From Roseibacillus persicicus (GTDB lineage Bacteria; Verrucomicrobiota; Verrucomicrobiia; Verrucomicrobiales; Akkermansiaceae): a stretch of 64,000 nucleotides of DNA. Each line of letters starts with the position of its first letter. Position 1 is the first letter of the stretch. A program made the translations under genes and the position numbers. Below the pieces are notes generated by a model. That model was not told the origin of the DNA and did not search any database. It saw only the letters and a program-made list of their open reading frames with translations. Location: assembly GCF_014651675.1 (NCBI RefSeq), contig NZ_BMXI01000007.1, positions 124,001 through 188,000 on the forward strand. Reading direction: 5' to 3'. Positions 35,360 through 52,521 of this stretch are shown piece by piece.

Positions 35360-38300
35360 CTAGCTCGCCAGCTTCAGCATATCAAAGATGAGTCGGGCGA
35401 ACTTCTTCCCTTTCTCAGCGTTTCCAATCAGTTGCAGTTTCTGGTTCTGATGAACTTCGCTGCTGTCGAGGATGGCGTCGTAAAGAGCTTTTGGAAAATC
35501 TCCCAAGAGCGCCTGTTCCTCACTATTGTTCGCGAGTTGTTGCATAACCGAGCCATTCTCTTTCATCTTATCCCGAATGGTGTAGGCGTAGTTGACGAGG
35601 TCTTGCTCGGTCAGACCTTCGGTGTCGAAGAGGGCGTTCAGCTGCTCAATAATGGTTGAGAGAGCTTCTTCCTTCTTGTCTTTTGACCGAGCTGAGCCCG
35701 CAGCTTCACCTCCAGCCAGGCCGGTTTCTCCCTCCGCCGTTGCGAGAGCCAAGTCTTGTTGTCGAATCTTGGAAAGGCGGTAGTGGCTGAGCTCCACGTT
35801 GCTCAGGTCGATGGGGTCCTCGTCCTCAAAGCTTTCTCGCAAGAGCGGTCGCAAGGCGCGGGCGTAAAGGCTCAACTTTTCCAAGTCCTTGTCGTCATAG
35901 TCGACGATTTGGGACATGAACTCGTAGAACCGAACAAAGGTCCCGAGGTCCTTCTTGAAAATATCGAGGGCGTCCTTGTCACGTTTGGCCTCCTTGAACT
36001 GGTTCTCCGCATTGGCCATCAGGACCGCATCTCCAGTCTTCTTTGTCCGCTCGAAGAGTGATTTACTTTCCTTATAGTTCAGCAAGGCGGCCGTGTAGCG
36101 CACCTTCCAGCGTTCCACCGCCGGTTTGCAAATATTGCTAATCGCTGCATTGCTCTTTCCTTTCTGGAAAAAGACCTCCGCGAATTGCTCCACCTCTTGC
36201 CAAAGAAAAATGCCGACGGCACGGAGTTTGTCAAAGAGGTCGTAGACCAGGTTGGGATCCGAGACTTCGCTCAGGGTCGCCGTTTTGTAGTAGGGGAGAA
36301 AGGAGTCGAGGATGTCCTGGGGCTCGTTAAAGAAGTCCAAGACAAAAGTCCCCGATTCCGCTTTGCCGGGGTAGACGCGATTGAGGCGCGAAAGCGTTTG
36401 CACGCATTCCACACCTCCCAATTTCTTGTCCACATACATTGCGCACAGCTTGGGTTGGTCGAAACCGGTTTGGAACTTGTTGGCCACGATCATCACTTGA
36501 TAGTCCTCGCTATCGAAGGCTTTGCGCATGTCGCGGCCTTTCAAGCCCGGATTCATGTTGTGCTCGGTAAACTTTCGTCCCGTCAAACCGGAGACATTTG
36601 GGTCGGAGTCGTGGAATTCAACTTCTCCGGAGAAAGCCACCATCCCGTAGAGTTTATAGTAGCTTTTTTCGTGAATGTATTTGTCGAAGCCGAGCTTGTA
36701 GCGCACTGCTTCTTTGCGGGAGCTGGTCACCACCATGGCCTTGGCTTGGCCGCCTAACAAACCCATCACATTGTCGCGAAAGTGCTCGACGATGACCTGC
36801 ACCTTTTGTGCGATGTTATAGTCGTGCAGCCGGATCCATTGGTTCAGCTTTACCCTCGCTTTCTTGCTCTCGACTTCGCTATCAGCGCTTTGCACTTTGA
36901 GGGCGAGTTGGTAGGCCGTTTTGTAATTGGTGTAATTTTTGAGAACATCGAGAATGAAGCCTTCCTCAATGGCCTGACGCATCGAATAGACGTGAAAGGC
37001 CTCGGGCTTGTTCTGGGGAGAAGGGGCTTCAGTTGGCTTCGGCAAGCGCCCGAAGAGTTCCAAGGTCTTAGCTTTAGGGGTCGCGGTGAAGGCAAAGTAA
37101 CTGAGGTTGGCGGAGACCTTGCGGGAGGCCACCAATTCGGTGAGAAGCTCGTCGGTGCCGGTTTCTTCCTCTGGGTCTTTGCTCTCCTTCATGAGCACTT
37201 CCTTCAGCTGCCGTGCAGTGGAGCCCGTTTGGCTGGAGTGGGCCTCGTCGGCAATGATGGCGTAGGAGCGTTCCTTCAGGCTGACGCTGTTTTCAATCGC
37301 TTTCAGGACGAAGGGAAAGGTCTGGATTGTGACGATGATGATGGGCTGGGAATCCTCCAAGGCTTTGGCCAGTTTTTCGGATTTCGAGCCCTCTCCCTCG
37401 TCGCGATTGATGCGGCCCACCACGCCATCGGTTTGTTCAAATTGCGAGATCGTATCCTGCAGCTGGTCATCTAACACCGTGCGGTCGGTCACTACTATGA
37501 TGGAGTGAAAGACTTTGCTTCCGTCCGCAGCGTAGAGCGAGGACAACTGGTGAGCGGTCCAAGCGATTGAGTTCGACTTGCCCGACCCCGCACTGTGCTG
37601 CACCAGATACTTTTGTCCGGGGCCTTCCTCAGCGGCAGTGTCCACCAGCTTGTTCACGACATCCCATTGATGATAGCGTGGGAAGATGAGGGTTTCTTTT
37701 TTGTATTTCAGCCCATCCCAATTCTCTTTCTCCTCAATCTGCAGATGGACGAAGCTCGCCAGAATTTTGAGCAAGTTGTCGGGCAAGAGGACCTCGTTCC
37801 AGAGGTAGTCGGTGGCGTATTGATTGACGTCAGCGGGCGTTTCGTTCCCCGCCCCTCCTTCAGACGTTCCTTTGTTGAATGGGAGGAAAAAGGTATTCGC
37901 ACCCGCCAACTTGGTGGTCATGTAGACCTCATACTGGCTAACCGCAAAGTGCACCAAAGCGCCGCGTTTGAAGGTCAGGAGCGGCTCAGGCTTTTTCGTC
38001 GCAGGATCGGTGGGGAGACGGTCCTTGCAATATTGCTTCTTGGCCAGCTCCACTGCTTGCTTGAACTCCGACTTCAGCTCCAGCGTCACCACCGGCAGCC
38101 CGTTGACAAAGAGGACTAGGTCGATGCGCCATTTCTTGGACTTCGCCACGCCTGCCGACTTCTGGGGCGAGCCATACTGCGTGGCACTTTCCTCAACCAA
38201 TCCCGTAAGCTGCGGCTCTTCTTCTTTTTCACCCTTGGTCCAAGGGCTGTAGACGAGTTCCGGCACTACTCGCAGCCTGTTTTTGCTATAGCGGGCCAGG

Positions 38301-38671
38301 GTGTCGGGATTGAGGTCGTGCTCGGGCTTGAACTGGCAGAGGTCGAAGCGTGTTCCGCGATCTTTGATGGGGTGGCGTAAGACCCCCAAGGTGCCAAAGG
38401 TTCGCATCGTGCTATCCGCCGCGTTGGGGTCTGCTTTGTGAAGTTGCACCGCTACTCGTTCGAGAAATTTGCTTTCGGCGTTGTTCGGATAGAGTCCGCT
38501 GAACTTCTTCCACTGCTCCGGCTGCGTCTCTTGCACGAAGCCTAACAAGTCCTCCTCATACAAGGCCAACTCGCGATTGTAATTCGCCGGCGACCCCAGC
38601 AACCAGCCGTTGTCTAACAAGTGTTCGATCATCTCGTCTTGGAAGGTGCGCTCGTTGGTTTGGTCGCTCAT
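35360..38671 (-). CDS. hsdR: Type I restriction endonuclease subunit R
   Basis: 1103 residues, normal for HsdR. The nuclease domain has D184 and E198-L-K200 (R-I-D-L-V and L-E-L-K), a PD-(D/E)XK site. The SF2 translocase follows: Walker A H-S-A-G-S-G-K-S at 359-366, D-E-A-H at 475-478, S-Y-F-A-F-T-A-T-P-K and V-A-N-K-F-Q-T-G-F-D. It cuts unmethylated DNA at a distance after translocation, together with HsdM2S. It is the last gene of the defence run, separated from hsdM/hsdS by about 6 kb of accessory genes, and starts 76 bp after the DUF3037 gene. The reading frame is intact. Confidence 0.96.
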   Translation of the reverse strand: MSDQTNERTFQDEMIEHLLDNGWLLGSPANYNRELALYEEDLLGFVQETQPEQWKKFSGLYPNNAESKFLERVAVQLHKADPNAADSTMRTFGTLGVLRHPIKDRGTRFDLCQFKPEHDLNPDTLARYSKNRLRVVPELVYSPWTKGEKEEEPQLTGLVEESATQYGSPQKSAGVAKSKKWRIDLVLFVNGLPVVTLELKSEFKQAVELAKKQYCKDRLPTDPATKKPEPLLTFKRGALVHFAVSQYEVYMTTKLAGANTFFLPFNKGTSEGGAGNETPADVNQYATDYLWNEVLLPDNLLKILASFVHLQIEEKENWDGLKYKKETLIFPRYHQWDVVNKLVDTAAEEGPGQKYLVQHSAGSGKSNSIAWTAHQLSSLYAADGSKVFHSIIVVTDRTVLDDQLQDTISQFEQTDGVVGRINRDEGEGSKSEKLAKALEDSQPIIIVTIQTFPFVLKAIENSVSLKERSYAIIADEAHSSQTGSTARQLKEVLMKESKDPEEETGTDELLTELVASRKVSANLSYFAFTATPKAKTLELFGRLPKPTEAPSPQNKPEAFHVYSMRQAIEEGFILDVLKNYTNYKTAYQLALKVQSADSEVESKKARVKLNQWIRLHDYNIAQKVQVIVEHFRDNVMGLLGGQAKAMVVTSSRKEAVRYKLGFDKYIHEKSYYKLYGMVAFSGEVEFHDSDPNVSGLTGRKFTEHNMNPGLKGRDMRKAFDSEDYQVMIVANKFQTGFDQPKLCAMYVDKKLGGVECVQTLSRLNRVYPGKAESGTFVLDFFNEPQDILDSFLPYYKTATLSEVSDPNLVYDLFDKLRAVGIFLWQEVEQFAEVFFQKGKSNAAISNICKPAVERWKVRYTAALLNYKESKSLFERTKKTGDAVLMANAENQFKEAKRDKDALDIFKKDLGTFVRFYEFMSQIVDYDDKDLEKLSLYARALRPLLRESFEDEDPIDLSNVELSHYRLSKIRQQDLALATAEGETGLAGGEAAGSARSKDKKEEALSTIIEQLNALFDTEGLTEQDLVNYAYTIRDKMKENGSVMQQLANNSEEQALLGDFPKALYDAILDSSEVHQNQKLQLIGNAEKGKKFARLIFDMLKLAS

Positions 38672-38747
38672 GATAGCTGGCAGCTACTCTTTCTCAAAAG
38701 AATAGATAATGCAGCTCTATTTCCAAACTGGTGTGTCTGCTGTTTAC

Positions 38748-39602
38748 TTAAGCTGCGGACAGCAAGACCTCTTGCTCCAAGCGATTGCCGAAGTCTACCG
38801 CCTCGTCTTCCTCAATGAGGGCTACATCCTTCGAGGCTGCGAGAATCTTACGGGCATCGCTATAGGCGCGCTCATTTTGGCCTCCTTGTGGACCTCCGAG
38901 GAGAAAGTGCAAGCGATGGGGGTCTTTCGATTCAGAAAGAAACCCAGCTTCGGCGTGCCAACGATAGGCCTTTTGGCGAATGTCTTCTGGCTTGATGAGG
39001 TCAAAGGAGAGGGTTTGGTAGACATTCCATTTTCCGTTCTTCCAGGCATTCTCAAATTCGTGACTAGCCAGAGGGGCTACGATTCGGTGCTTGCGGAGAT
39101 GTCTCTTCACCGCTTCTCGAGCAAAGGCTTGGCGATATACCTCGCTATAGACTTTCGCCTCATCGCGTCGAAAGTTGTCGGTCACGTTGTAGTGACTCTC
39201 AATTTGGCCCTCAAAGAGGAGCTTCAATTCCTCCTCAGGGGACTCGCAGAGCCCACCGCTAGACAGGCCCCATTGGAGAGCCGCCGAATCAACGGGAATA
39301 ATCTTCACCGCCAAATCGCGTGCGCTTTCGGGTTTGTCGCCGAGCACTAGCTCTAAGGAAGTTTCGTGCAACTCAACGGACAAATCGTTAAAGCGAGTTT
39401 GGATTCGCTTCATCATTTTGCGGTAATCTTCTTTGTGAAAATCAGCAAAGAACTTGGAGAGGCGGCTAAATTTTTCGGTTCCTCGGAAGATGAGAGTCTG
39501 GCTCTTCGGTGCCCATAGCAGGACGCCGACATTCGCGAATTCCCCCGAAAGAGGCTCGTGAATGTATCGCAAGAAGCAGAAGCTGTAGGGCTCAAGATTC
39601 AT
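38748..39602 (-). CDS. DUF3037 domain protein, partner of HipA-like kinase
   Basis: 284 residues. The N-terminal 120 or so match DUF3037 (Y-S-F-C-F-L-R-Y-I-H-E-P-L-S-G-E-F-A-N-V-G-V-L-L). The C-terminal half is charged and less conserved. Its ATG overlaps the kinase stop in ATGA, so the two are made together. DUF3037 and HipA-like kinase genes are often neighbours; a toxin-antitoxin or defence role is suspected but not shown here. Confidence 0.82.
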   Translation of the reverse strand: MNLEPYSFCFLRYIHEPLSGEFANVGVLLWAPKSQTLIFRGTEKFSRLSKFFADFHKEDYRKMMKRIQTRFNDLSVELHETSLELVLGDKPESARDLAVKIIPVDSAALQWGLSSGGLCESPEEELKLLFEGQIESHYNVTDNFRRDEAKVYSEVYRQAFAREAVKRHLRKHRIVAPLASHEFENAWKNGKWNVYQTLSFDLIKPEDIRQKAYRWHAEAGFLSESKDPHRLHFLLGGPQGGQNERAYSDARKILAASKDVALIEEDEAVDFGNRLEQEVLLSAA

Positions 39603-40432
39603 TGTTTCGTCGGAAAAGAGTGCGCCGTGAGATAGCCGAAAAAATCGTCAACCCCAACTGACAGTCGTTCAAAATAAGCCGAAAGTTCGGAAAAGTCGAG
39701 CGAGGAGCTTGGGAAGGCCCCTGAGATCATGAGATGAAGTTCGCTATCGCCATGTTGGAGATTCCATTCCTCAAAAGAGTCCCAAAGACCATTGGCCAAG
39801 CCCTTGTCAGGATCGAGGCGGAGGTGGGGGAAGAGGCAGTGAGCGGAGAGTTGCATCATCGGAAGCGCCTTTCTCCACGGTCTGTCTTCGTCACGCAATG
39901 AGGTGATATGAGAGAAAGCCTTGTCGAAGTCCAGCATCGCGAGTTCTTCTCCGCGCCAGAGCAGGTTGGGATTGTCACTTCGTCGGTCGGAGTTCTGAAC
40001 CATGGCGTCAAAGGCATAGGCCGCGTTAATTTCCTCTTTGGGAATGGATTGCGGCGGCTTGGTGTCGAGCCATTGCTTCCAGTCGCTCCCGAGATGAACG
40101 GTGGCAAAGTTTGGGCCGTGGCTCCTTTCAATCAAATCAACGTAGTCCTTACCGTTGTGGTTTCGATAGTCCATCGCTCCGAACTCCAAGCCTGGGACCA
40201 AATTCACGACCACCGGCTCCACCGTTGTCAGCCCTAATTGTCGGGCCAGCAACAACGAGAAAAGTTCGCGCATGACCAGCTCCATGCGATGCCCGTAGCC
40301 AGCGTGACATTTGACGACAAGGGTTTCCCTTTTGCTTTGCCCGCCTTCCTGCGCAGTAACGAGAAAGGGCAAGTTAAGTCCCCGTGCCATTGGCTGGCGA
40401 AATTGAAGGGCTGTGAAGTGGCGGAGGGACAT
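39599..40432 (-). CDS. HipA-like protein kinase
   Basis: 277 residues, a compact HipA_2-type kinase without the N-terminal HipA couple domain. Putative ATP-binding K41 is in L-V-V-K-C, catalytic D149 and N154 are in N-S-D-R-R-S-D-N-P, and the Mg-binding motif is L-D-F-D at 167-170, so the active site is complete. HipA kinases phosphorylate translation factors such as GltX. Here there is no HipB HTH antitoxin; instead it is coupled to DUF3037. It starts 9 bp after the DUF262 gene in the same run. Confidence 0.85.
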   Translation of the reverse strand: MSLRHFTALQFRQPMARGLNLPFLVTAQEGGQSKRETLVVKCHAGYGHRMELVMRELFSLLLARQLGLTTVEPVVVNLVPGLEFGAMDYRNHNGKDYVDLIERSHGPNFATVHLGSDWKQWLDTKPPQSIPKEEINAAYAFDAMVQNSDRRSDNPNLLWRGEELAMLDFDKAFSHITSLRDEDRPWRKALPMMQLSAHCLFPHLRLDPDKGLANGLWDSFEEWNLQHGDSELHLMISGAFPSSSLDFSELSAYFERLSVGVDDFFGYLTAHSFPTKQ

Positions 40433-40441
40433 GCGAAGATT

Positions 40442-42280
40442 CTATTGGGGGAGTTCAAAAGCCCAAATCCGCTCACAAATCGCCTGATAGAGTTTCTGTC
40501 TTTCCTCGATATCGGCCTTCTTAAACTCGGGATGGGCTCGGAAGGGGAGATCGAGGATCTTGACCATATTGGTGAAATTCGGATTTTTAGTGTAGGTCTC
40601 GGCGCAGAGAGACTTCACGAGGAGGTTCTCTTTAAGATAGTGCGGTTGCTTCTGCTCGTAGGGCATCGCGTTGTAGGACTGGTTGGTTCCTCGAGGCAGG
40701 AGAATCAGGTTGCCGATGCTTTCACGGAATCGCTCGAAGTCAGCTGGATGGTCGAACTCGTCTTTGTGGCGCTCGAACTTGTTGGCCCAGATATGCTCAA
40801 TCTCCATCGGCTTGCCCTCAGGATACTGGTAATCTACGAAATTGGTGCTCAGGCCAGACTGCTCGTCAAGGAAGCCAGAGATACGAGCCAGGAGGAACTT
40901 GATGAACGGGCTGTTCGTCTTGTGTCGCCAGAACTTCTGCATCCCGTCCCAACTCTCCTCAATCTCGGCAACCTTGCCAGCGAGGATAGTGTGGAGTTCT
41001 GCCAGCGGTTTGCGCCGAATCTCCTTCGTCAGTGAACACATCGTATAGCGAATGGAACTCACTCCGAAGTTGCGGAAGTTCAGCGAGCGTCTCACGCAGA
41101 AGATCTCAATATACTTCGCTACCAAATTTATCTTCTGGTCGATGGTCTCGGCATCGTCGTCTAGGCAGAGGGGAGCCAGCATCAACTGGTAGCTCAGCGA
41201 GTCAGCAATGCCCCAGCTGTCGATGTAGTAGACGTGCTCCAGTGACTTGATGAAGTTCAACTGAGCCTCCCACAAGCGGACGTAGGCACGCTGAAAGAAA
41301 ACCAAGTCCTTGTTGAGAAATTGTTTGAAGTCTGCAGCAGAATCACTCCGCAAAGGAATCTGGTCGAGGTGTTCGCGGAACCAACTGTGGAAGCTACCAA
41401 TATTCTCGAAGTCCTCGTTTTTCGAACCCTTCTTACTCGGTCGAATCGTTTCGGCATATTGCGCTCGGAACCATGATTGGAAGAACCTCAGGTCTTCTTC
41501 ATCCTTATACTCATTCAGCTCCTTCATGGATCTCTTCCAAAGCCCATTGAAGGCCTCTCGGTCTTCGTCTGTTTTCAAGCGCGAAAGGAGATAACCCTTC
41601 AGCATCTCGGTAGAGGTGAGGCTCAATCCTCGGTCGTTCATGGTCTCGAAGATGGTGTAGGCGTTGTCATCCGAATGAGCGATGATTTCGACGAGAATCA
41701 CATTGTCCTTCATCCAATCGACAAAGAGGGGGAGAGCCTCTTCGTTAATCTCAGTGGGAAAGGCTTCGATGATGTCCTGATAACGCTTCGCCATATTCAG
41801 GGTCGAGTCATTGTCTTCCTTGGTGGGTTCGTAGTAGTCGTTCAGGAAGAGTTCGTCCAAGCACTCCTCCCTCTCTTCCACCGTGATGTTAAACGATTTT
41901 TTTCCATACTTGGTGGAGCAAATCATAGAGCGAATCTCGGCCTTCTCTTCGGCGTTGGTGAGACGGTGATAGAGAAAGATGAGGAAGAGGGAGAGCGAGG
42001 TGAGCCGCTGTTGACCATCAATAATGCTCAGCGTTCCTTCCTTCTGACTTAGGACGAAGGGGCCGAGGTAGTAGCTATTGTAGCTCTCCGTCTCGCCACG
42101 CTCATGGTCAGGTTGGTATTCGTTGAGGAAGGCATTCGCCAAGTCCGTTACAAGCTGCTCGATGTGGGTCTGGCCCCAGCTGTATTCTCGTTGGAAGTAA
42201 TCGACCGTGAATTTTCGGTTGCTCAGCACCTCCGACACAGTGCGGTCGCGGGCTTCGATTTTATTTTCGATTTTGCTCAT
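40442..42280 (-). CDS. GmrSD-like DUF262/DUF1524 protein
   Basis: 612 residues in one chain. The N-terminal DUF262 domain has Q-R-E-Y-S-W and the signature I-I-D-G-Q-Q-R-L-T (D-G-Q-Q-R at 88-92), a ParB/DndB-like NTPase motif. The C-terminal DUF1524 domain has I-E-H-I (H496) and I-G-N-L-I-L-L-P-R-G-T-N, an HNH-type nuclease motif. This is the layout of single-chain GmrSD-type type IV restriction enzymes, which cut glucosylated hydroxymethylcytosine phage DNA, and of related defence nucleases. It lies in the middle of the defence run, 54 bp after the preceding gene. Confidence 0.88.
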   Translation of the reverse strand: MSKIENKIEARDRTVSEVLSNRKFTVDYFQREYSWGQTHIEQLVTDLANAFLNEYQPDHERGETESYNSYYLGPFVLSQKEGTLSIIDGQQRLTSLSLFLIFLYHRLTNAEEKAEIRSMICSTKYGKKSFNITVEEREECLDELFLNDYYEPTKEDNDSTLNMAKRYQDIIEAFPTEINEEALPLFVDWMKDNVILVEIIAHSDDNAYTIFETMNDRGLSLTSTEMLKGYLLSRLKTDEDREAFNGLWKRSMKELNEYKDEEDLRFFQSWFRAQYAETIRPSKKGSKNEDFENIGSFHSWFREHLDQIPLRSDSAADFKQFLNKDLVFFQRAYVRLWEAQLNFIKSLEHVYYIDSWGIADSLSYQLMLAPLCLDDDAETIDQKINLVAKYIEIFCVRRSLNFRNFGVSSIRYTMCSLTKEIRRKPLAELHTILAGKVAEIEESWDGMQKFWRHKTNSPFIKFLLARISGFLDEQSGLSTNFVDYQYPEGKPMEIEHIWANKFERHKDEFDHPADFERFRESIGNLILLPRGTNQSYNAMPYEQKQPHYLKENLLVKSLCAETYTKNPNFTNMVKILDLPFRAHPEFKKADIEERQKLYQAICERIWAFELPQ

Positions 42281-42334
42281 GGATTAAGAAATAGATTGAG
42301 GAACATTTGCGAGTTCCTAGGATTAGGTGCTTTT

Positions 42335-43015
42335 TTACTCGTTGGCTTTCGATGCAATCTCGTAGGGGGATTCTCCACGTCGGTAGAGAGGCACTCCATG
42401 AGTTTTCGCTGATGCGAGAATGCGAGAGACGATCCTGTCTGTGCTTTCCTGTTCGAAGAGTTCGGAGACCTCGCAACAGAAGCCGTGAATGTTGTCTTCA
42501 GCAAGGTCCTTGGGCCAGTCGGCGTTGGGAGCTACCAGCTGTTTGACGAGGTTGTTCTCGATGAGTTGACGGGGGGGCTTCCAAGGTCCATCAAAGAGAA
42601 GGAAGAGCATTTTTGATTTCGATTCCTCGACCGGCTGGAACGTTTGGAGGTTCTCTTTATTGCGGTTTGCATCTTGGTTCTCATAGAATCCAGAGTCGTT
42701 GATAAGAATTGCGCAGAGAGTAACAAAATTTTTATTCTCGACGTTGATTCCTCGATGATTGCCGCTCCGGTAGTCAAAGCGGAACTCATAGTGATACATT
42801 CCCAGCCAATCCCAAGCAAAGTTGGTCAGAGAACCGGCCCCTGATCTCGGTTGAGGATTCGAAAATTTCGACCATCCACCACGAAAGGGAATGTCCAGTT
42901 CAGTGCTGATATACTTGAGAGAGTTCATCACCAATTTCTGGTAGTCATGCAGGAGGCGATAGGACTTGCGAACGTCTGACAGCAGGGTGGTATATTCTTC
43001 GGCTGATGCTTTCAT
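42335..43015 (-). CDS. Unknown partner of PD-(D/E)XK-like nuclease
   Basis: 226 residues that I do not recognise. The N-terminus is helical (V-R-K-S-Y-R-L-L-H-D-Y-Q-K-L-V). An aromatic-rich core follows (F-A-W-D-W-L-G-M-Y-H-Y-E-F-R-F), then a mixed hydrophobic stretch M-L-F-L-L-F-D-G-P-W. The C-terminal half is helical. It overlaps the nuclease gene by 4 bp (ATGA), so the two are translated together and may form a complex. No nuclease, kinase or membrane signature is seen. Confidence 0.75.
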   Translation of the reverse strand: MKASAEEYTTLLSDVRKSYRLLHDYQKLVMNSLKYISTELDIPFRGGWSKFSNPQPRSGAGSLTNFAWDWLGMYHYEFRFDYRSGNHRGINVENKNFVTLCAILINDSGFYENQDANRNKENLQTFQPVEESKSKMLFLLFDGPWKPPRQLIENNLVKQLVAPNADWPKDLAEDNIHGFCCEVSELFEQESTDRIVSRILASAKTHGVPLYRRGESPYEIASKANE

Positions 43016-43695
43016 TTTAAGTGAATGGCGGCTCCTAGTGAGGTGAGAAGTTGGCTGCTGGACGGCGAGTGAACCGGACTTTTAGGAAAGGTGAAACCAG
43101 AGAACCAAAGGACACTTGCAAATCCATGAAGATTGAGGGAGTCGACCACATCGTCAAGAATCCGTTGAGTGGCTCTGGACTGTGACGAAGGGCACTCTTC
43201 CTGTTCCATTGCGGAGAGAATTTTTTGGCATTGTTGCAGAAGGCTTGCCCATCTTAGAAAGTGGAAGGAGACCTCTGGCCAATCTGGCAAGGCCTGGGGT
43301 GAGGAGAAACCAAGGCCTCCAACGGCTAGGTAGTGAACATCTTGATTATCGGGACCGTAGTCATTTCCATAGGCCGTCACCTGAGCTCGCCATTGAGCGG
43401 GGTTCTGCATTTCACCATCCCATCGTTTGGCTTCTATAATGAGGTCAAATGACTGAAAGCGGATAAAGAGATCGGGTTCCACAAAGCGGCCATTCGGGGT
43501 GCCATCAGGTGACCATTTTGGCCACGGTTCGATTGTGAGGGGGTCGCCACAAAGGTTGGGTAAGGGATGGCCTGGGGGCGAAGAAGATGATGCCTTGAGA
43601 ACCTGCCAAAAGACTTCGACTGGCAAATGGAGAAGGCTCCCGAACACGGACGCGGTGAGGGTGTCCTCTTTCGGTGAAATGAACCGGGTTAGCAT
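43012..43695 (-). CDS. PD-(D/E)XK-like nuclease, hsdS-linked (B)
   Basis: 227 residues. The core E-P-D (D75) and, after a strand, I-I-E-A-K (E88, K90) is a standard PD-(D/E)XK site, followed by W-R-A-Q-V-T-A-Y in the usual helix position. The N-terminal 60 and C-terminal 100 residues match nothing I know. Its ATG lies inside the last codons of a leftover hsdS 3' end, which shows that it once followed a complete hsdS directly. It is coupled downstream to the 226-residue unknown protein. A DNA-cutting role in defence is likely; the trigger is unknown. Confidence 0.78.
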   Translation of the reverse strand: MLTRFISPKEDTLTASVFGSLLHLPVEVFWQVLKASSSSPPGHPLPNLCGDPLTIEPWPKWSPDGTPNGRFVEPDLFIRFQSFDLIIEAKRWDGEMQNPAQWRAQVTAYGNDYGPDNQDVHYLAVGGLGFSSPQALPDWPEVSFHFLRWASLLQQCQKILSAMEQEECPSSQSRATQRILDDVVDSLNLHGFASVLWFSGFTFPKSPVHSPSSSQLLTSLGAAIHLK

Positions 43696-43850
43696 GATTT
43701 TGAAGAGTCTGAATCAGTAGGGTTTTGCCAGTCGCGGACGTCGATCTTTCCGGTGACGGCGGCGGAGATGATGGCGGTGCTGCGTTTTTGCAGGAGGAAA
43801 CTCGGTTTCTGGGAAGCTGGTGTCTGGTTGGATCGCGAGTTTAAGCTTGC
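43689..43850 (-). pseudogene. Leftover 3' end of a second hsdS gene
   Basis: 43726-43796 matches 45043-45113 of the intact hsdS at 67 of 71 bases. It encodes the conserved C-terminal helix and tail ([19 protein letters not shown]), then its own 13 further codons and a TAA at 43689-43691. The frame stays open upstream to about 43850 with no start and unlike hsdS sequence. Only the 3' tip remains, so this is a duplication scar. Confidence 0.85.
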
Positions 43851-43917
43851 CTGAGAACTTTGGACCGCATCAGTGGGGTGGGCTGAGGGCTCGCGGTCCG
43901 GCCGGGAGGGTGGGGTG

Positions 43918-45018
43918 TTAGGGGCTTGTCTGGTGTGGGAGACCGCGTCCGAATTTATCTAGGAAGGCCACTAGCCCTGCTAGCTTCGGTTGCACATCTT
44001 TGAGGGACTCAAAGTAGTTCGAGGATAGGAGCAGGGAGTTCTCTGTTGTGAAACTGGATTCTCGCATTAGCTGCAGGGTGTCTCCTTCGGCTTCAATCAA
44101 GGCTTCCTTCATCTCTTGAGGAGAAAGCTCGTCGAGTCTTACCCCGAGATAAATGTTTAGTCTCTCCTCTTGAGCAGGGTAGCGGGCCAGGAAGAGTTTG
44201 CCCCGGCTCCACCGGTCGCAGGTGATCCATTTTCCCCAACCGCCGGAGCCAAGGCTCGAGTGTTCAATTTTCGCACTATTCTCTTTGATGAGTTCTTGAA
44301 CCCACTCGAGAAAGTTTTTCTCAAGATGGGCCAAATATTCCCTCTTCAGGGCTTCGGCTTTTTCAATTTCAGGGTAATAGCTCTCAGCGAGCCGGACACG
44401 TTCGTCGTTCATGGGGAGAGTGTAGAGTTCTTGTTGGAAGTGCTTTACGAAATCCTGCGCAAAAACGAGCCACTTTCCATTCTTGGAGTCACTCCAGGTT
44501 TCGAGGCGGGTTTCGAGGCGGGCGAGGAAGTCTTGATAGGTGACCCGCAGCCAATTCTTCCTTTGTTCACCCGGGAAGGGGGCGAGGATGACCTGTAGTG
44601 CGGCAATGCCGTGTTGTGAGCGGGTACGGACATAGGTTTCGTAGCTCTCGAAGGGGTTGTTTTCGTGATGCCGAATCTTGTTCTCAATGACGATCAGCCA
44701 ATCGTCGCCTTCCAACACGAGATCGAGGCGCTTCTTGTCAGAGGTAGGCACCTCCCGTTCGACACTGAGAATCCCCTTTAAGAATCTATCAAGGGGATAC
44801 TTGGGAGACGGCTGGAGAGACGCTAAGAAGCACTCTAGAAACAAGTTTCCAAAGCCGTGCTCTTGTTGGGGGTTGAGAAAAAACTGGAGCAGTTGCGAGG
44901 TGGGATTCTCGTAATAGCCCCTGCCGCCAATCGAAAGGAAAGTTGTTTCCTGAGTCCCTCCGCGATGCTGTTGGAGAGTGTCTAGCAGTAGCGTTAACTT
45001 TGCGTGTTCTGAAGTCAT
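43918..45018 (-). CDS. PD-(D/E)XK nuclease family protein, hsdS-coupled (A)
   Basis: 366 residues of the PDDEXK_4 type. The motif is R-L-D-L-V-L-E with D99, then L-I-V-I-E-N-K-I with E112 and K114, the E-x-K variant common in this group. An early Y-E-N-P-T-S-Q-L-L-Q-F-F-L-N-P also fits the family. The C-terminal 160 residues form a separate charged domain. Its ATG overlaps the hsdS stop by 4 bp, so it is made with the specificity subunit. Such single nucleases are frequent in defence loci but poorly characterised. It may be an independent restriction factor or an accessory to the type I complex. Confidence 0.85.
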   Translation of the reverse strand: MTSEHAKLTLLLDTLQQHRGGTQETTFLSIGGRGYYENPTSQLLQFFLNPQQEHGFGNLFLECFLASLQPSPKYPLDRFLKGILSVEREVPTSDKKRLDLVLEGDDWLIVIENKIRHHENNPFESYETYVRTRSQHGIAALQVILAPFPGEQRKNWLRVTYQDFLARLETRLETWSDSKNGKWLVFAQDFVKHFQQELYTLPMNDERVRLAESYYPEIEKAEALKREYLAHLEKNFLEWVQELIKENSAKIEHSSLGSGGWGKWITCDRWSRGKLFLARYPAQEERLNIYLGVRLDELSPQEMKEALIEAEGDTLQLMRESSFTTENSLLLSSNYFESLKDVQPKLAGLVAFLDKFGRGLPHQTSP

Positions 45019-46403
45019 GAGGCTTTCCTCTCTTTTGGGGGCTGCCAGTCGCGGACGTCGATCTTGCCGGTGACGGCGGCGGAGATGAGGGCGGTGCGGC
45101 GTTCTTGCAGGAGCCCTACGGTGCGTTTTGCCTTTGCTGTGAGAGAGTCAAACTTAACTACCTCAGTGTCGAGGAAGCTGACTATGGTCTTTTGCTCCTT
45201 AAGATTAGGAAAAGTGAAGTAGGCGGCCGCTAATAGCGACGAGCTGATAATCGACTGGTTAGCTAGCTTGTGGCTGAACACATTGAGATGGTTCCTATAT
45301 GCAGAACTGCAAAGAGTATAGAAGAGATAGCTTTTTAGAAGAACAGTTCCTTTCTCCCGCATGATTACGACATTTTGATTGGGGACCGCACCAGCTAAAC
45401 TTGGAGGGACTATTCCTACTTGTCCTACAGCGGACTCCAGAATTTTCGGATCACTTCCGACCATGCTAATTACGACATCATTCTTCTTAAGAATCACCCG
45501 CTTGTAGGCTGATACAATTTTTTCGGGTAAGAAGATTGATGGTTGAGTGACTGACTTTTTCTTAATATTCCCAGCTCGAATAAAAGGAACACCCTCATCT
45601 TGAAAGTGGGAAGAACTAAACCCAAATCCGTTTATCGTGTCAACATGCTGCTTTAAGGGGGAAACATTCCAATGCTCAGGCACCTTGCCGAGCCATTCGA
45701 TGCCGGAGTCTTTGAGGGGTGGGTGGGGGTTGAGGCCGACTTTTTGGGCGGCTTCTGGGGGGAGGCCTTTGGTGACGGCGTGGCTGATGACGGCTTGCCG
45801 TTTTTCTTTCAGCAGGGCGATCAGCTCTTGCTGCTTCTCAATCAACTCATCAATCTTCGCCGTCTCGTAGTCGAGGAATTTGGCGATTTGGATTTGTTCG
45901 GGGAGGGGAGGAATAGGAATCTTGATTGTGCCGAACGTGTCAGCTCGAACAACTTTACGGAGGCCCGTGTAAAATGGTTTCAGCCCTTTGAACGAGTCAA
46001 TGTGAAGAAAGTAAAAGCAGGCGTAGTTTGGGTTATAACGGGGCGACGTTCGATAGACATTGTAAGCGCCTGTTATCATTCCTTCGTGGAAGGATAGGCC
46101 GATTGAACGCGGCGTTTCATCAATATCAAAGAGGCAAAATATGAGTTCGTCAGGTGAGACTATTTGGTAAGAATTGAATTCTGCTGGAATTTTTCCCTCT
46201 CCGTTGCTGATGTCGCGGGTGATTACTCCTCTGAGGGTGAGGGAAAGAAGTTGAAAACTGGCATGGTCAGTTCCAACTAATTCGCGACGAAGTGTGAGGA
46301 CTTTCTTTGACGGTTCGACTTCCCAGTTAGAAGGGAAGTCGCCGAGCCACTCCACCTCAGAATCCCGATACTCCGGATACGGCTTGTATTTCCCCGCACT
46401 CAT
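45015..46403 (-). CDS. hsdS: Type I restriction-modification specificity subunit S
   Basis: 462 residues with the standard two half-repeats. The first target recognition domain covers about 20-190, followed by a central helix ([15 protein letters not shown]). The second covers about 230-425 and ends in the matching helix [19 protein letters not shown]-x-x-P-x-x-W motifs open each half. It sets the DNA sequence recognised by the complex. It overlaps hsdM by 4 bp upstream and nuclease A by 4 bp downstream. A copy of its 3' 71 bp survives 1.3 kb further on. Confidence 0.95.
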
Positions 46404-48712
46404 GAATGCACCTCCGCTAAGAGTTTCATGATTTCTTTGCTGACGGCGTCGAGGTCGCGGTCGATGTCAGCGAGGTCGCGGGGGGGTTGGTATTGGTAGA
46501 AGTGGCGGTTGAAGGGGATTTCGTAGCCCACGATGCCAATCTCGCCGTCGCGGGGGTCGGTCTTGCTGGCGTCGATCCAGGCGTCGGGGACGTGGGGGAG
46601 GACTTCGCGTTGGAAGTAGGCTTCGTTGAGGGCGTTGACGGTTTGGGTGGGGTCGAGGGGGACGTTCTCGTTGTCGCGCAGGTCGCCGTCGGGTTTGTAT
46701 TCAATGACTTGTTCGCCGACCTGGAAGCGACCGTAGAGGGGCGCGGCTTGTCCCTTCTTTTGAACCTTTTTAATAACCTTCGCGGCATCGGGGTTTTTCC
46801 AAGAGACTGCGGCGGTGATTTGCTTTTTCGCAGGGGCGTCGAGTTTGATTCCGGTGCTCTTGAGGGCGGCTTCGTAGCCGTTCATATCGTCGTGCTGTTC
46901 GCTGCCGAGGGTGGCTTGCAATTGGCGGGCGAGGAGGAGGATGTCGCGCTGGGCGAGCCACACTTTCTCCGCGAGGAGGTCTTTGAGGTGTTTTTCCTTG
47001 AGCTCGGGGAAGTCGGCCTTGAGGGCGACGCGAATCTCGGCTTCATGTTCGCTGAGCTGACCGTAGTTTTCCGCATCGTCGCCCTCGTCCGACCAGTCTT
47101 GGCCATACTCCTGATAGATCCACTGCATGGGTGCGTGGAGGGGCTTGGGGGCGAAGCGGAGGGTGGAGAGACGTTCGTCGCTGAATTGATAGGACTCGCG
47201 CAGGGGCCGTTCGATGGTGAGGCGGCGGTAGCCAAAGGCGTGGGTGGGGAAGAGCTTGGCGGCGAAGGTCTTGGGTGCTTCTTTTTTTGCATTGGAGGAC
47301 TGGCGGCCGCGAGTGCTCTTTGCCTCGGTGGGTTTGTCGAGGAGTTCGGGCGCGATATCGGCGAATTCCCCGAAGGCACGGGTGATTTTGGCAATGTCTT
47401 CCTCGCTCAGTTCGTGGCGCTTGGAGCCGAGGGATTTGTGCATCTTGTGGTGAAGGTGGACGCCATTGATGAGGATAACCTGGCCCTTGCGATCCTCGGC
47501 CTTCTTATTGGAAAGAATCCAGACGTAGGTCGCGATGCCGGTGTTGTAGAACATGTCGGTGGGCAGGGCCACGATGCCTTCCAAGAGGTCGGCCTCTAAC
47601 AGGTAGCGCCGAATCTCCGACTCGCCCGAGCCTGCTCCGCCGGTGAAGAGGGGAGAGCCATTGAGGATGATGCCGATGCGTCCGCCGCCGTCCTTGCTAT
47701 CGCGTAGCTTGCTGAGGAGGTGCATCAGGAAGAGGAGGGAGCCATCGGAGACGCGGGGGAGACCGGGACCGAAGCGCCCCCCGAAGCCTTGCACGCTGTG
47801 CTCTTCCTTAATGTCGCCCTCGATCTTTTTCCAATCCACGCCAAAGGGTGGGTTGGAGAGCATGTAGTCGAACTTGTCGTTGGGGAGCTGGTCGTTGGAG
47901 AGGGTGTTGCCGAGCTTGATGCGGTCCACCTCCTGCCCCTTGATGAGCATGTCGCCCTTGCAGATGGCGTAGGACTCGGGGTTGAGTTCTTGGCCAAAGG
48001 CGCGCATCACGGCGTTGGGGTTCATTTCGTAGACGTATTCCATGCCCGCAGAGAGGAAGCCGCCGGTGCCAGCAGTGGGGTCGTAGATGGTACGGATGAT
48101 GCCAGGCTTCTGGAGCGCGTCGTCATCTTCCATAAAGACGAGGGAGGTGGTGAGGCGGACGATGTCGCGCGGGGTAAAGTGTTCCCCAGCGGTGTCGTTG
48201 GAGCTTTCCGCAAAACGGCGGATGAGCTCCTCGAAGACGAGCCCCATCTCATGATTGGAGATGGCCTCGGGGTTGAGGTCGGCGGTGCGCACCCGCTGCA
48301 CGACCTTGTAGAGGAGATTGGCATCGGCAAGCTGGCCAATGAACTCGTTGAAGTTGAAATACTCGAAGATCTCGCGCGCATCACGGGAGAACTTGCGCAG
48401 ATAGGTCTCCAGGTTGGCCGCGATGCCCGCTTCCCCGAGCTTGCCGAGGTCCATGGGAGAGGTGTTGAAGAAGGTGAGCCCGGCGGCGCGGAGGAGGAGC
48501 TGTTCCTCGGCTTCCTCGGGGAGGTTCATGGCTGTGATTTTTTCGGCTTCGGCGAGAACGGCGGGCTTGCTGGCCTCCAGCACGCATTCGAGACGGCGCA
48601 GGAGGGTGAAAGGTAGGATGATGCGCCCGTATTGACTTTGGCGAAAATCCCCACGCAAGAGGTCGGCGAGGGACCAGATATAGGAAGCGAGGTTATTGGG
48701 TGTGTCGGCCAT
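46400..48712 (-). CDS. hsdM: Type I restriction-modification DNA methyltransferase subunit M
   Basis: 770 residues. An N-terminal helical HsdM domain precedes the N6-adenine methylase core. Motif I is D-P-T-A-G-T-G-G at 211-218 and motif IV is N-P-P-F at 287-290. The roughly 300-residue extension beyond the core ([10 protein letters not shown] and K-K-V-Q-K-K-G-Q) is longer than in classical EcoKI HsdM of about 530 residues but is common in other type I families. It methylates host DNA and joins HsdR for restriction. It is the first gene of the defence run; its promoter must lie in the 319 bp upstream. Confidence 0.95.
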
Positions 48713-49031
48713 GCCCCCGCATGAGAGCAGAAAAGGGCGGTAAGGGGGACCAAAGAATCTAACGAGAAGGTGTCATGGTCCTCTGTCAGAGTCTGATGAA
48801 AGATCTGACCGAAGTCTCATGGCACGAGCTTCAGCGTGACTTCCAACAAGGTTCTCAATCTCTTGGCAAGGAGTCCGGCTTCTTGACCTGAACAGCCCCG
48901 ACATTCATGGGGGGTTATTGGAAGGGCTGTCAACTTGATCTGAGCATTGTTCTGGTTGGCTCCACTGCCGCTTCTCACGCAAGGCGGAGTTCTTGAGAGG
49001 GGCTCAAAAACTATGGTCGCCTCCACACATT
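48713..49031. other. Intergenic region upstream of hsdM
   Basis: 319 bp between the primase gene and hsdM. A CTCCACA/TGTGGAG hairpin (49021-49041) straddles the primase 3' end and may end that transcript, although no T run follows. A 38-codon plus-strand frame (48775-48891) is preceded by GAGAAGG but has no recognisable product. The hsdM promoter should be here; no clear -35/-10 pair stands out. Confidence 0.5.
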
Positions 49032-50330
49032 CTATGTGGAGGAGGCAATCCAGCGATAGATAGTGGCTTTCCCCCTGCCTTCTTTGGAATGGGCTGTTCC
49101 GGGTACTACGACTTCTAAAATTTTGTGAGCCTCGAATGATGCTAGTATTTTTCTAGCTGTTTTAGGATCAACTCCCAGTCTCAAAGCTAGTTCACTATTG
49201 CTGAGGAAAAATTCTGGGGGCTTGACATCCTCGTTTTCCAACTGGGACAGATTTCGACATATTCTTGCAGCTGAGAGATGTGGCTCATTGAGGCCTTCGA
49301 GAGCCATTTTTTCAGAGTTGTTTAGACTCGTCTTCCATCTCTGGATGACTGCTTCCAGATGACTTTCTGATTCTCTTTTGTGCTGCTCAAAAGAGTCGGT
49401 GAAGATCTCAGCGTTGAGCTTGTAGAAGTAGTCAGAGAGTTCCCTCGCGAATTTTATTGAGACATTGTGCGCGAGGAAGGGGACAAGCTTAATGAGTTGA
49501 GCATTCCTTTCTCCCTGCCGGGGAGAGTAGATGTTTGCGATGAACCGCTTGTAGAGGGGGGCGAGATTGGGGTGACGAGCTAGATCTCGAGCGGCTTTCT
49601 CGGACATCTTGATCTTTGCTGCAAGAGAAGAAGGGGGGGAAGGGGGAGGGGATTCTTTTGAACGATTTCTAGGCTTTGTGATTTTATGTGATTTATAGCC
49701 ATTTTTGTCATTTATAGGGAATGGGAACGTAATGGACTGAAAGTTAGTCGTTAAAGGTTCGGCCTTGTTTGTGATTTGATAAGGGGCATTGCTGTCTGGG
49801 TGAATACCTCGAATGATCGTCTGATGGTGGTGTGATCGCCACTCGCCAAGATGGTTTCCGTCAGGGCCGACGAAATCAAATTTGGCTGGGTATTCTCCTC
49901 GCATATATAACCAAAGGTTCTCTCCTCGATAGCCTTTTGAGCGCAGTGTGTTTGCGAATACTGGGTTCAAATCCAAAAGCAGTTGACGGAAGTCTTCGTC
50001 ATCGCAGTCGATAGTTATGAGATTCGAAGACGGGGGGCCAAGAAGGACCCCCATATTGCCGTGTCCTTCAAGTTTACGCTGCCATTCAGGTGACTGGGAT
50101 TCTTCGAAGGAGGTGTTCTGCCATCCTGGGATTCGACACCCTTTTTGCCGCCTAGGAACCGGAAGAAGAACTGTTGGATTGGGAAAGAGTTCGTAGATTT
50201 CCGAGATGGAAGAGGGTTGCGAGAAGATGTTGTTCTCGGTTGCGTCAGACGGTTGCTGGGAGGTGCTTATAGGAGTCAGGTTCAACGAGTTCTCGAAAAG
50301 CTCGCCCTGTTCTTGGAGTGGGCGTCGCAT
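49032..50330 (-). CDS. Bifunctional DNA primase/polymerase (PrimPol, AEP family)
   Basis: 432 residues. The PrimPol core is at about 50-210: a V-L-L-G-P strand, catalytic acidic motif I-T-I-D-C-D-D (D108, D110), and the His motif H-H-H-Q-T-I-I-R-G-I-H-P at about 167-178. The C-terminal 100 residues contain a winged-helix segment (S-N-S-E-L-A-L-R-L-G-V-D-P-K-T-A-R-K-I-L). There is no helicase domain. Such proteins replicate mobile elements and prime plasmids or satellites. It is the third gene of a tightly coupled set, its ATG overlapping the DUF3820 stop (TAATG). Confidence 0.82.
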   Translation of the reverse strand: MRRPLQEQGELFENSLNLTPISTSQQPSDATENNIFSQPSSISEIYELFPNPTVLLPVPRRQKGCRIPGWQNTSFEESQSPEWQRKLEGHGNMGVLLGPPSSNLITIDCDDEDFRQLLLDLNPVFANTLRSKGYRGENLWLYMRGEYPAKFDFVGPDGNHLGEWRSHHHQTIIRGIHPDSNAPYQITNKAEPLTTNFQSITFPFPINDKNGYKSHKITKPRNRSKESPPPSPPSSLAAKIKMSEKAARDLARHPNLAPLYKRFIANIYSPRQGERNAQLIKLVPFLAHNVSIKFARELSDYFYKLNAEIFTDSFEQHKRESESHLEAVIQRWKTSLNNSEKMALEGLNEPHLSAARICRNLSQLENEDVKPPEFFLSNSELALRLGVDPKTARKILASFEAHKILEVVVPGTAHSKEGRGKATIYRWIASST

Positions 50331-50560
50331 TACTTTGGGGAGGTTTTTCGTCTAGACATCTCCTTGTCGAGGACCGTTGCGAGAGCGGGATCGTCGGTTT
50401 CGGAATGGAGCCACCACAGGTAAGAATCAGGGACTGTCTTGATGTCTTTCCCCGCATACTTTCCGAAGCAGAGAGTTGTCTTTTGTTGCGATTCGAGAAA
50501 CTTTGGCGGCCGTTCATGAAAGCCCCGATCTCCAATTGTGATTCTGCGGTTAGGGCTCAT
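50330..50560 (-). CDS. DUF3820-like small protein
   Basis: 76 residues from the ATG at 50560, chosen because a strong GGAGG lies 7 bases upstream. The recognisable core is F-G-K-Y-A-G-K-D-I-K-T-V-P-D-S-Y-L-W-W-L, the DUF3820 (putative quorum-sensing-regulated virulence factor) motif. The domain is found alone in mobile elements and attached to exonucleases. It is translationally coupled on both sides (TAATG with the HTH gene and TAATG with the primase). A helper role in replication is inferred. Confidence 0.75.
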   Translation of the reverse strand: MSPNRRITIGDRGFHERPPKFLESQQKTTLCFGKYAGKDIKTVPDSYLWWLHSETDDPALATVLDKEMSRRKTSPK

Positions 50561-50745
50561 TATTGTCCTCCTTCCAAATAGGCTAAGACGGCATCCCATC
50601 GGTATCTAACCGAAGACCCCCAGCGAATGCAGGGGAAGTTGGGATCGAGTTCGATTTTTCGGGTACTTACCCGGAGGCGTTTTGCTAGTTCCTTCTTGGT
50701 AAGTAGTCTTTCTTCGTTTTGCTCCTTTTGTTGTGAAGTCTTCAT
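50560..50745 (-). CDS. AlpA-like helix-turn-helix protein (excisionase-type)
   Basis: 61 residues forming one MerR/AlpA-type winged helix: R-L-L-T-K-K-E-L-A-K-R-L-R-V-S-T-R-K-I, then F-P-C-I-R-W-G-S-S-V-R-Y-R. Length, sequence and position next to an integrase fit excisionase or transcription regulators of integrative islands. It starts a three-gene unit with DUF3820 and PrimPol. A tandem 12-bp repeat about 120 bp upstream could be its operator. Confidence 0.8.
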   Translation of the reverse strand: MKTSQQKEQNEERLLTKKELAKRLRVSTRKIELDPNFPCIRWGSSVRYRWDAVLAYLEGGQ

Positions 50746-50817
50746 TGTTCGTTTCCTTGCGGATCAACCGAAATGAAAGAGCTCGTGACGAAGCGTGACC
50801 AGAAAAGATGAAAAACA

Positions 50818-50832
50818 GGGGACTAGGAGTCC
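50818..50832 (-). terminator. Short hairpin with T run upstream of alpA-like gene
   Basis: GGGACT and AGTCCC pair around three bases; on the minus strand CCTG and TTTTT follow. It could end read-through from the integrase side or act as an attenuator before the HTH gene. The small loop makes it weak. Confidence 0.4.
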
Positions 50833-50868
50833 CTTGTCACTCTCCAGTCTGAAAAGAGCGAAAACTCA

Positions 50869-50892
50869 TGTAGCCACTTGTGTGGCCACTTT
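50869..50892. promoter_or_regulatory. Tandem 12-bp repeat, candidate operator
   Basis: TGTAGCCACTTG is followed directly by TGTGGCCACTTT, two copies differing at two positions, with GTGGCCAC palindromic in the second. It lies upstream of the HTH gene, spaced like a regulator binding site. Confidence 0.4.
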
Positions 50893-50950
50893 TGGCGACA
50901 TTGAGTTAATTAAGAATTCCGTAATAAAATGCAGAATTGCTGAACTTCAC

Positions 50951-51061
50951 CTATTCGGATGGCAGAATCGTCCAATAAGCTTTAGCCGAAGCTGGAGTCA
51001 CTGCGTTGCGGTAGTGTCGAATCGTGGTAGGGGATTTGCGCCTCATCTCCCAAGCGATCAT
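50951..51061 (-). pseudogene. C-terminal remnant of a second tyrosine integrase
   Basis: 36 codons read W-E-M-R-R-K-S-P-T-T-I-R-H-Y-R and A-K-A-Y-W-T-I-L-P-S-E, then a TAG. They align with the end of the intact integrase (M-G-N-S-P-A-M-I-E-E-H-Y-K and A-K-A-Y-W-Q-I-A-P-I-E), including the catalytic Tyr. The remainder of the recombinase is missing. It overlaps a 48-codon frame by 4 bp. Confidence 0.75.
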
Positions 51062-51204
51062 AGGGAGCTTTCTGAAATTGGCGGTGGGTAAGTGTGGACA
51101 ATCTCATCAACGGTCAGGCCCAGAGAGCTAGGAGCTACTTGGCCTAGTTTGTCCGGGGGAGCTATGTCTTCGAAAAGGTCTTCAAAAAAATGACCTTTGA
51201 TCAT
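51058..51204 (-). CDS. Small open reading frame directly behind the integrase
   Basis: 48 residues: F-F-E-D-L-F-E-D-I-A-P-P-D-K-L and L-T-V-D-E-I-V-H-T-Y-P. It begins 5 bp after the integrase stop, suggesting coupling, and its end overlaps the integrase remnant. Composition is protein-like (acidic, amphipathic). No family is recognised; it may be a genuine short gene or a fused relic. Confidence 0.4.
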   Translation of the reverse strand: MIKGHFFEDLFEDIAPPDKLGQVAPSSLGLTVDEIVHTYPPPISESSL

Positions 51205-51209
51205 CAATT

Positions 51210-52424: not shown

Positions 52425-52464
52425 AGGTCAACGAATGACTGCGAATTGGAGCGAAATCAAGAGG

Positions 52465-52488
52465 AAATCGGATACAGGGTGGATACAC
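52465..52488 (+). repeat. Putative integrase arm-type site, right copy
   Basis: 21 of 24 bases match the left copy at 34340-34363, in the same orientation. It lies between the integrase start and attR, 33 bp inside the core repeat. Confidence 0.55.
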
Positions 52489-52521
52489 GGATAATTTTTT
52501 CCTGTTATTAAAGGGTTGTCT

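What the first reader, a model, noticed from the sequence alone, without database searches (positions are those of the whole stretch)
43689..45113. hsdS 3'-end duplication marks a module insertion
43726-43796 repeats the last part of the intact hsdS (45043-45113) at 67 of 71 bases. Nuclease A begins in the stop of intact hsdS and nuclease B begins in the stop of the leftover copy. The simplest reading is recombination at the conserved hsdS 3' end that slipped one nuclease module in front of another. This would be a general way for type I loci to collect accessory genes.
Basis: partly seen in the sequence, partly recalled or inferred. Interest (0 to 1): 0.8.

Follow-up and report, generated by a model that had tools for sequence, protein, structure and literature searches.

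The report
Scar of a defence-gene insertion
A short broken copy of the end of a restriction gene probably marks where an extra nuclease gene was slipped into a bacterial DNA-restriction operon, and some related operons carry similar scars, which suggests how such operons pick up extra genes.

Summary
The repeat is real: 67 of 71 bases, two copies in the genome. The leftover has no start codon and changes two residues invariant in 72 related HsdS tails, so it is a dead stump. But 67/71 alone proves no local duplication: the intact tail matches hsdS genes of other loci at 67-68/71. No locus with hsdS directly followed by either nuclease was found. The general idea holds: in 80 loci of the same type I subfamily, stumps of backbone-gene ends accompany accessory genes in 12, or 12 of 272 ends against 4 of 633 control ends. 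In Pseudomonas an empty, a loaded and a composite locus exist; the composite keeps an empty-type hsdR 5' stump and an hsdR with loaded-type start and empty-type body. Best reading: nuclease A entered an operon already carrying B by recombination at the hsdS 3' end, a form of 'insertion with long target duplication'. Several inserted genes match candidate anti-phage families, so this suggests how 'embedded' defences get in. The operon sits in a tRNA-Arg island with an integrase.

The parts
43689..43796 (-). leftover hsdS 3' stump; conserved block 43726-43796, own 3' extension and stop TAA 43691-43689
   Evidence: 67/71 to the intact tail, no start codon, K and S at two positions that are E and R in 72 of 72 tails
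45043..45113 (-). matching block in the intact hsdS 3' end
45015..46403 (-). intact hsdS (specificity subunit)
   Evidence: Pfam Methylase_S and PADLOC Specificity_I
43918..45018 (-). nuclease A, PD-(D/E)XK, PADLOC candidate PDC-S26; start overlaps hsdS stop (ATGA)
   Evidence: Pfam PDDEXK_4 E 1.9e-15; PDC-S26 E 1.1e-69
43797..43917 (-). 121 bases between nuclease A and the stump; joint of the proposed insertion at about 43797
   Evidence: no similarity to hsdS upstream of the block
   Evidence: PDC-M15A E 4.2e-57; no Pfam match
42335..43015 (-). partner of B, PADLOC PDC-M15B
   Evidence: E 7.4e-45
40442..42280 (-). DUF262/GmrSD-type protein; relatives (BLAST cluster c3) sit between hsdS and hsdR in four of 80 related loci
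39599..40432 (-). HipA-like kinase, PADLOC PDC-M66A
38748..39602 (-). DUF3037 protein, PADLOC PDC-M66B
35360..38671 (-). hsdR (restriction subunit)
46400..48712 (-). hsdM (methylase), 67-80% identical in the 80 best loci found
34188..52570 (.). presumed integrative island that carries the operon: last 49 bases of tRNA-Arg(ccg) (34188-34236) repeated exactly at 52522-52570, integrase at 51210-52424

Best explanation
The leftover is the stump of an hsdS 3' end, left when a module carrying an hsdS 3' end followed by nuclease A entered an operon that was already hsdM-hsdS-nuclease B and following genes. One joint was made by recombination in a conserved backbone gene (the hsdS tail block or further upstream); the other lies at about 43797, where foreign DNA meets the resident hsdS tail. 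The result is additive: hsdS stays whole, A starts in its stop, and B keeps its original leader, the stump. The same process, insertion with duplication of a backbone-gene end, works at the ends of hsdM, hsdS and hsdR in this type I subfamily and brings in candidate defence genes. Shown: the structures, the excess of stumps over control gene ends, and a mosaic with its crossover in one Pseudomonas locus. Inferred: that the window's stump arose the same way, how much of hsdS came with A, translational coupling, and the recombination enzymes.
For: Repeat, no start codon, residues unseen in 72 tails. Each tail has its own 3' extension and its own downstream gene. Stumps: hsdM 3' L092, L095, L101, L106, L142; hsdS 3' L141 and the window; hsdR 5' L080, L115, L123, L133; hsdR 3' L121, L138 (between them). 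Rate 12/272 ends against 4/633 control ends, p 2.4e-4; at 45 bases or more 11/272 against 2/633, p 6.6e-5. The five hsdM stumps run into the next gene's start with stop and start codons adjoining or overlapping, as the window's stump does before B. Composite L133 = hsdS-c2-stump-c5-c6-hsdR, while L100 has c2 alone and L103 has c5-c6 alone. Pseudomonas: the stump of L123 matches empty locus L193 at 70/74; its intact hsdR begins like loaded locus L196 and continues like L193, 16:4 then 8:35 sites, p 4.7e-6 at the best-fitting cut. In 6 of 10 stump pairs measured (window and L059 apart) synonymous divergence is over five times the nonsynonymous, so those copies were two working alleles. Outside the subfamily: L197 hsdR 5' (95% over 160 bases) and L059 hsdS 3' (93% over 154).
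Against: No hsdS-A or hsdS-B direct locus found. The intact tail is equally close to other loci's tails, so the window's repeat cannot date or source the event. The window pair has 1 synonymous and 3 nonsynonymous changes, too few to tell a foreign allele from a local copy; L106, L133, L142, L197 and L059 also lack a strong synonymous excess. hsdS 3' stumps are the rarer kind (1 of 72 besides the window). The mosaic concerns hsdR, not hsdS, and only about five of its loaded-type sites lie inside hsdR. Nine of the 12 stump loci (not L092, L123, L133) are MAG or 'uncultured' records by title, where chimeras are possible. The loci are not fully independent, so p values are optimistic.
Confidence: 0.72

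Rival explanations
1. The operon once held two hsdS genes, as in specificity-switching type I loci; the second decayed to its tail and nuclease A lay between them.
For: Type I loci with duplicated hsdS are known (PMC7394358, search listing only). The leftover shows decay at invariant residues.
Against: No trace of hsdS upstream of the block. No second full hsdS recognised in the 80 relatives. Does not explain stumps of hsdM and hsdR.
Confidence: 0.13
2. A version inside the best explanation, not exclusive of it: hsdS and nuclease A came as one unit that replaced the old hsdS except its tail (allele swap plus insertion), rather than a tail-plus-A cassette.
For: HsdS is mostly about 30-40% identical between loci whose HsdM is 67-80%, so hsdS seems to be exchanged often; both tails have their own extension.
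Against: No relative carrying this hsdS was found to test it. In Pseudomonas L123 the incoming piece brought only the first codons of hsdR.
Confidence: 0.4
3. A site-specific element integrated at the hsdS 3' end, so that the repeats are attachment sites.
For: Gene 3'-end duplication is a mark of integrases (general knowledge), and the whole island looks bounded that way at tRNA-Arg.
Against: No recombinase recognised between the repeats, where nuclease A is the only gene with a family match; in relatives different gene ends, also 5' ends, and lengths of 35 to 354 bases.
Confidence: 0.04
4. The leftover is kept because it serves as leader for translating nuclease B (compatible with the best explanation).
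For: Stop and start overlap at B; similar at hsdM stumps and at the hsdR stump in L197; in L196 the first nine hsdR codons are fused to the cargo gene.
Against: No start codon in the leftover frame and residues at invariant sites changed.
Confidence: 0.2

Closest known systems
Insertion with long target duplication (Nobusato et al. 2000; seen only as cited in passages of PMC3031569 and PMC1643837)
   Same: Restriction-linked genes inserted with long, variable duplications of the target
   Different: There restriction systems insert into a genome; here accessory genes insert inside or beside a type I operon, at the ends of its own genes, and stack
Defences embedded in immune-system operons, 'guilt-by-embedding' (Payne et al. 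2024 preprint, not held; cited in PMC12255303, passages read)
   Same: Candidate defence genes between hsdS and hsdR; that the PADLOC PDC names stem from that work is recalled, not checked
   Different: The passages read treat embedding as a clue to function; no end stumps or crossover appear in them
RptR-RMS-DarTG island of enteropathogenic E. coli (PMC12255303, passages read)
   Same: A toxin-antitoxin pair between hsdS and hsdR; the site is called a potential recombination hotspot
   Different: No stump described in the passages read; another set of genes
Type I loci with duplicated hsdS genes (PMC7394358, search listing only)
   Same: More than one hsdS 3' end in a locus
   Different: There distinct hsdS genes switch specificity; here only a dead tail beside an inserted nuclease

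Membership tests
Insertion with long target duplication | Direct duplication of target sequence flanks the insert | tested here: met
   67/71 bases flank nuclease A; 12 of 80 relatives show such ends
Insertion with long target duplication | Related genome with the empty, unduplicated site | tested here: inconclusive
   Not found for the window; found for relative L123 (empty L193)
Insertion with long target duplication | No transposase or integrase in the insert | tested here: met
   Nuclease A is the only gene with a family match between the repeats
Embedded defence module in a type I operon | Candidate defence gene between hsd genes, same strand | tested here: met
   PDC-S26, PDC-M15A/B, PDC-M66A/B between hsdS and hsdR
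Embedded defence module in a type I operon | Anti-phage activity | not testable with these tools
   No experiment
Type I locus with duplicated hsdS | Second full-length hsdS in the locus | tested here: not met
   Only the 71-base block beside the intact gene; no other hsdS-like sequence in the slot
Type I locus with duplicated hsdS | Inverted repeats or a recombinase for switching | not tested
   No search for inverted repeats was made
Site-specific integrative element at hsdS | Recombinase within the insert | tested here: not met
   None recognised between 43797 and 45042

The most novel reading that the evidence does not exclude
The conserved ends of hsdM, hsdS and hsdR act as general docking sites: any DNA carrying a defence module next to such an end can be added by homologous recombination, keeping backbone proteins and the neighbouring start signals intact, and the resulting direct repeats allow the module to be lost again or moved to other type I operons. 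Type I operons would then be recombination-driven cassette collectors, a recombinase-free counterpart of integrons, and this would be a main way defences become embedded.
Probability: 0.3. Interest if true: 0.8.

Novelty: new variant of a known kind. Interest (0 to 1): 0.6.

Why it matters
Candidate anti-phage genes are sought because they sit inside type I restriction operons, but how they get there is, as far as I know, not settled. Stumps of backbone-gene ends are a readable record of the entries: they can give order (here A after B), direction, and sometimes the crossover point, and they can be scanned for in all genomes. If the docking idea holds, operon gene ends predict where new defence genes will appear.

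Tried and rejected
Tried without result: viral contigs for nuclease B (no relative); plasmids with the Vibrio homologue of B (only the two already known records). E. coli genomes with an hsdM of the subfamily (284 of 5,426 genomes match, 110 over at least 80% of the query): four loci read; L152-L154 have no gene between hsdS and hsdR; L155, matching over only 40% of the query, has a DUF5655 gene there and shows no use for the question. Three plasmid loci of the subfamily (L156-L158) also have no annotated gene between hsdS and hsdR. Of 57 plasmid records with A's family, five regions were read: three with type I genes, two without. Considered and rejected: a retroelement template repeat for L121, because the mismatches are mixed and mostly synonymous, not adenine-specific by eye; the repeat at four junctions of L132, which by eye is an inverted-repeat element; the weak tail match in L068/L066 (9.4 bits); L116, probably a frameshift; L198, an operon remnant rather than an insertion. 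The self-repeat scan also lists repeats of other kinds, set aside by eye: conserved blocks inside hsdS in many loci, and intergenic repeats in L092, L099, L101, L104, L120, L131, L136 and L137 (in L137 partly with hsdR). Left out of the 12/272 count: hsdM 5' (1 of 77, a whole second hsdM in L134) and hsdS 5' (1 of 71, 18 bases in L131). The window itself is not in that count. Control ends are of open frames of 200 or more codons, not verified genes. L096 and L097 are near-identical in this region, and L081 and L104 have the same 71-base tail, so loci are not fully independent. L196 and L194 appear to be the same records as L103 and L105 (equal contig lengths).
Full report
Observation. The two copies match at 67 of 71 bases with abrupt edges, and the genome holds no third copy at E 1e-3. 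The operon on the minus strand reads hsdM, hsdS, nuclease A, stump, nuclease B, B's partner, a DUF262/GmrSD protein, a HipA-like kinase, a DUF3037 protein, hsdR. PADLOC names A as PDC-S26, B and partner as PDC-M15A/B, and the kinase pair as PDC-M66A/B, all candidate defence families. The stump frame is open for 89 codons but has no start codon, and it carries K and S where 72 of 72 related tails have E and R.

What the repeat does and does not prove. The block [23 protein letters not shown] is almost invariant in 72 HsdS proteins of the same type I subfamily; the subfamily was sampled as the best 80 of 240 confirmed loci, with HsdM 67-80% identical to the window's. At DNA level the window's intact tail matches L142 at 68/71 and L081 and L104 (one and the same tail sequence) at 67/71, as well as it matches the leftover. 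The leftover's own best match is the intact tail, 67 against 64 at most. So the repeat shows that a second hsdS end was once here, but not that it was copied from the first. One synonymous and three nonsynonymous changes separate the pair.

Search for the simple arrangements. In 387 genomes sampled from the phylum, B was found in its own genome and once weakly elsewhere, in a 79-residue frame with a stop, and A's family in 12 genomes including its own; the short flanks of the other 11 hold nothing similar to the window's hsd genes, nor do wider stretches around two of them, L064 and L065. None of the 80 related loci has A or B at tblastn E 1e-4, though some end early. On plasmids, A's family lies between hsdS and hsdR in V. 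alginolyticus and A. towneri and behind hsdR in S. kushneri, but without annotated hsd genes in the Klebsiella and Cupriavidus regions read; five of 57 records were read. B with partner lies behind hsdS and a Fic gene in V. rumoiensis, and without annotated hsd genes nearby in Ochrobactrum. These type I operons are of other families by their low similarity.

Generality. A scan of 81 loci for direct repeats within the operon, a profile scan for the six ends of the three hsd genes and a nucleotide search from those ends show, between them, partial copies of backbone-gene ends beside accessory genes. hsdM 3': L092 (35 bases), L095 (128), L101 (216), L106 (65), L142 (67). hsdS 3': L141, besides the window. 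hsdR 5': L080, L115, L123, L133. hsdR 3': L121, L138. 12 of 272 such ends have a copy within 6 kb, against 4 of 633 ends of open frames outside the operon, Fisher p 2.4e-4; with copies of 45 bases or more 11 of 272 against 2 of 633, p 6.6e-5. The outer 5' end of hsdM and the 5' end of hsdS gave one hit each, of other kinds. The hsdM stumps lead into the next gene's start with stop and start codons adjoining or overlapping, which is how the window's stump leads into B. A search for the tail peptide in the 387 genomes gave 33 places in 29 genomes; five lie in frames under 140 residues: the window's stump, G158 (L059), G192, and two at contig ends that decide nothing. L059 has an hsdS 3' copy at 93% over 154 bases, and a Pseudomonas genome of another subfamily (L197) an hsdR 5' copy at 95% over 160 bases. 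Genes in stump loci include RhuM, YhcG/DUF1016, Schlafen-AlbA, Fic, GmrSD pairs, a KAP ATPase, a PIN-domain protein and a reverse transcriptase; several match PADLOC candidates.

Stacking. Cargo clusters show intermediate states: L100 has hsdS-c2-hsdR, L103 has hsdS-c5-c6-hsdR, and L133 has hsdS-c2-[hsdR 5' stump]-c5-c6-hsdR (stump). Cluster c4 (RhuM by its member) sits both between hsdM and hsdS and between hsdS and hsdR in L101. In 24 of 64 loci with both genes measured, under 200 bases lie between the hsdS tail and hsdR.

Mechanism read in one case. In 298 Pseudomonas genomes, 47 HsdR heads lie in 42 genomes; three have frames under 200 residues, two of these with an intact hsdR nearby. L123 has an empty relative in L193 (HsdM 97%, HsdR 98% protein identity) and a loaded relative in L196. 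The stump in L123 matches L193 at 70/74 and L196 at 56/74; the hsdR as a whole matches L193 at 3097 and L196 at 2776 of 3249 bases. At sites where L193 and L196 differ, L123's intact copy is L196-like up to alignment column 114 and L193-like from column 119 on (16:4 then 8:35, p 4.7e-6 at the best-fitting cut, hence optimistic). Most of the first 20 sites lie upstream of or at the start codon; about five lie in hsdR itself. So the crossover lies within the first codons of hsdR, next to the block for FQNDML. L193-like bases make up 32 of the 34 stump sites that match one of the two. In L196 the cargo gene itself begins with nine codons like the start of an empty-type hsdR. In L095, L101, L080, L115, L123 and L121, synonymous divergence between stump and intact copy is 0.29-0.71 against 0.03-0.06 nonsynonymous: both were working alleles before they met, so these insertions joined DNA of two lineages. 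L106, L133, L142, L197 and L059 are less clear.

Setting. The operon lies between an exact 49-base repeat of the tRNA-Arg(ccg) 3' end, with a phage-type integrase beside it, so it is probably an integrative island. Such islands could bring a second copy of the operon into a cell, a donor for the recombination proposed (inference).

Literature. 'Insertion with long target duplication' was described for restriction genes in Helicobacter (Nobusato 2000, seen only as cited in PMC3031569 and PMC1643837). Embedding of defences between hsdS and hsdR is known (PMC12255303, passages; Payne 2024 preprint not held). Searches, in a library without bioRxiv and most subscription journals, did not turn up a description of hsd end stumps as entry marks; their results were seen as listings, with passages of three papers, so this is weak evidence of absence.

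Verdict. Observation confirmed; interpretation partly supported for this locus and, as a general process, supported in this subfamily with two cases outside it. I rate it a new variant of a known kind.

Noticed in passing
34188-34236 and 52522-52570; integrase 51210-52424: The last 49 bases of tRNA-Arg(ccg) are repeated exactly 18.3 kb away beside a phage-type integrase: the type I operon probably sits in an integrative island.
   Followed up: partly
L121:17178-19581: A reverse-transcriptase gene with a small upstream ORF lies behind hsdR and is followed by a 354-base copy (91%) of the hsdR 3' end.
   Followed up: partly
L196:5607-7265, minus strand (apparently the same record as L103): A GmrSD-type cargo gene begins with nine codons like the start of an empty-type hsdR, in frame, as if it had taken over the hsdR start.
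   Followed up: partly
L141:14651-15492: The hsdS tail plus the start of the following small gene is repeated after a PIN-domain gene, perhaps a tandem toxin-antitoxin insertion.
   Followed up: no
L059:12170-14608: An hsdS 3' stump lies right behind a copy of the 5' part of a downstream gene: two nested duplications.
   Followed up: no
L198:7738-8308: A remnant with only an hsdS tail and an hsdR head in native order.
   Followed up: no
L132:2763, 4213, 4873, 5732: A repeat of about 35 bases or more recurs at four gene junctions of one type I operon.
   Followed up: no
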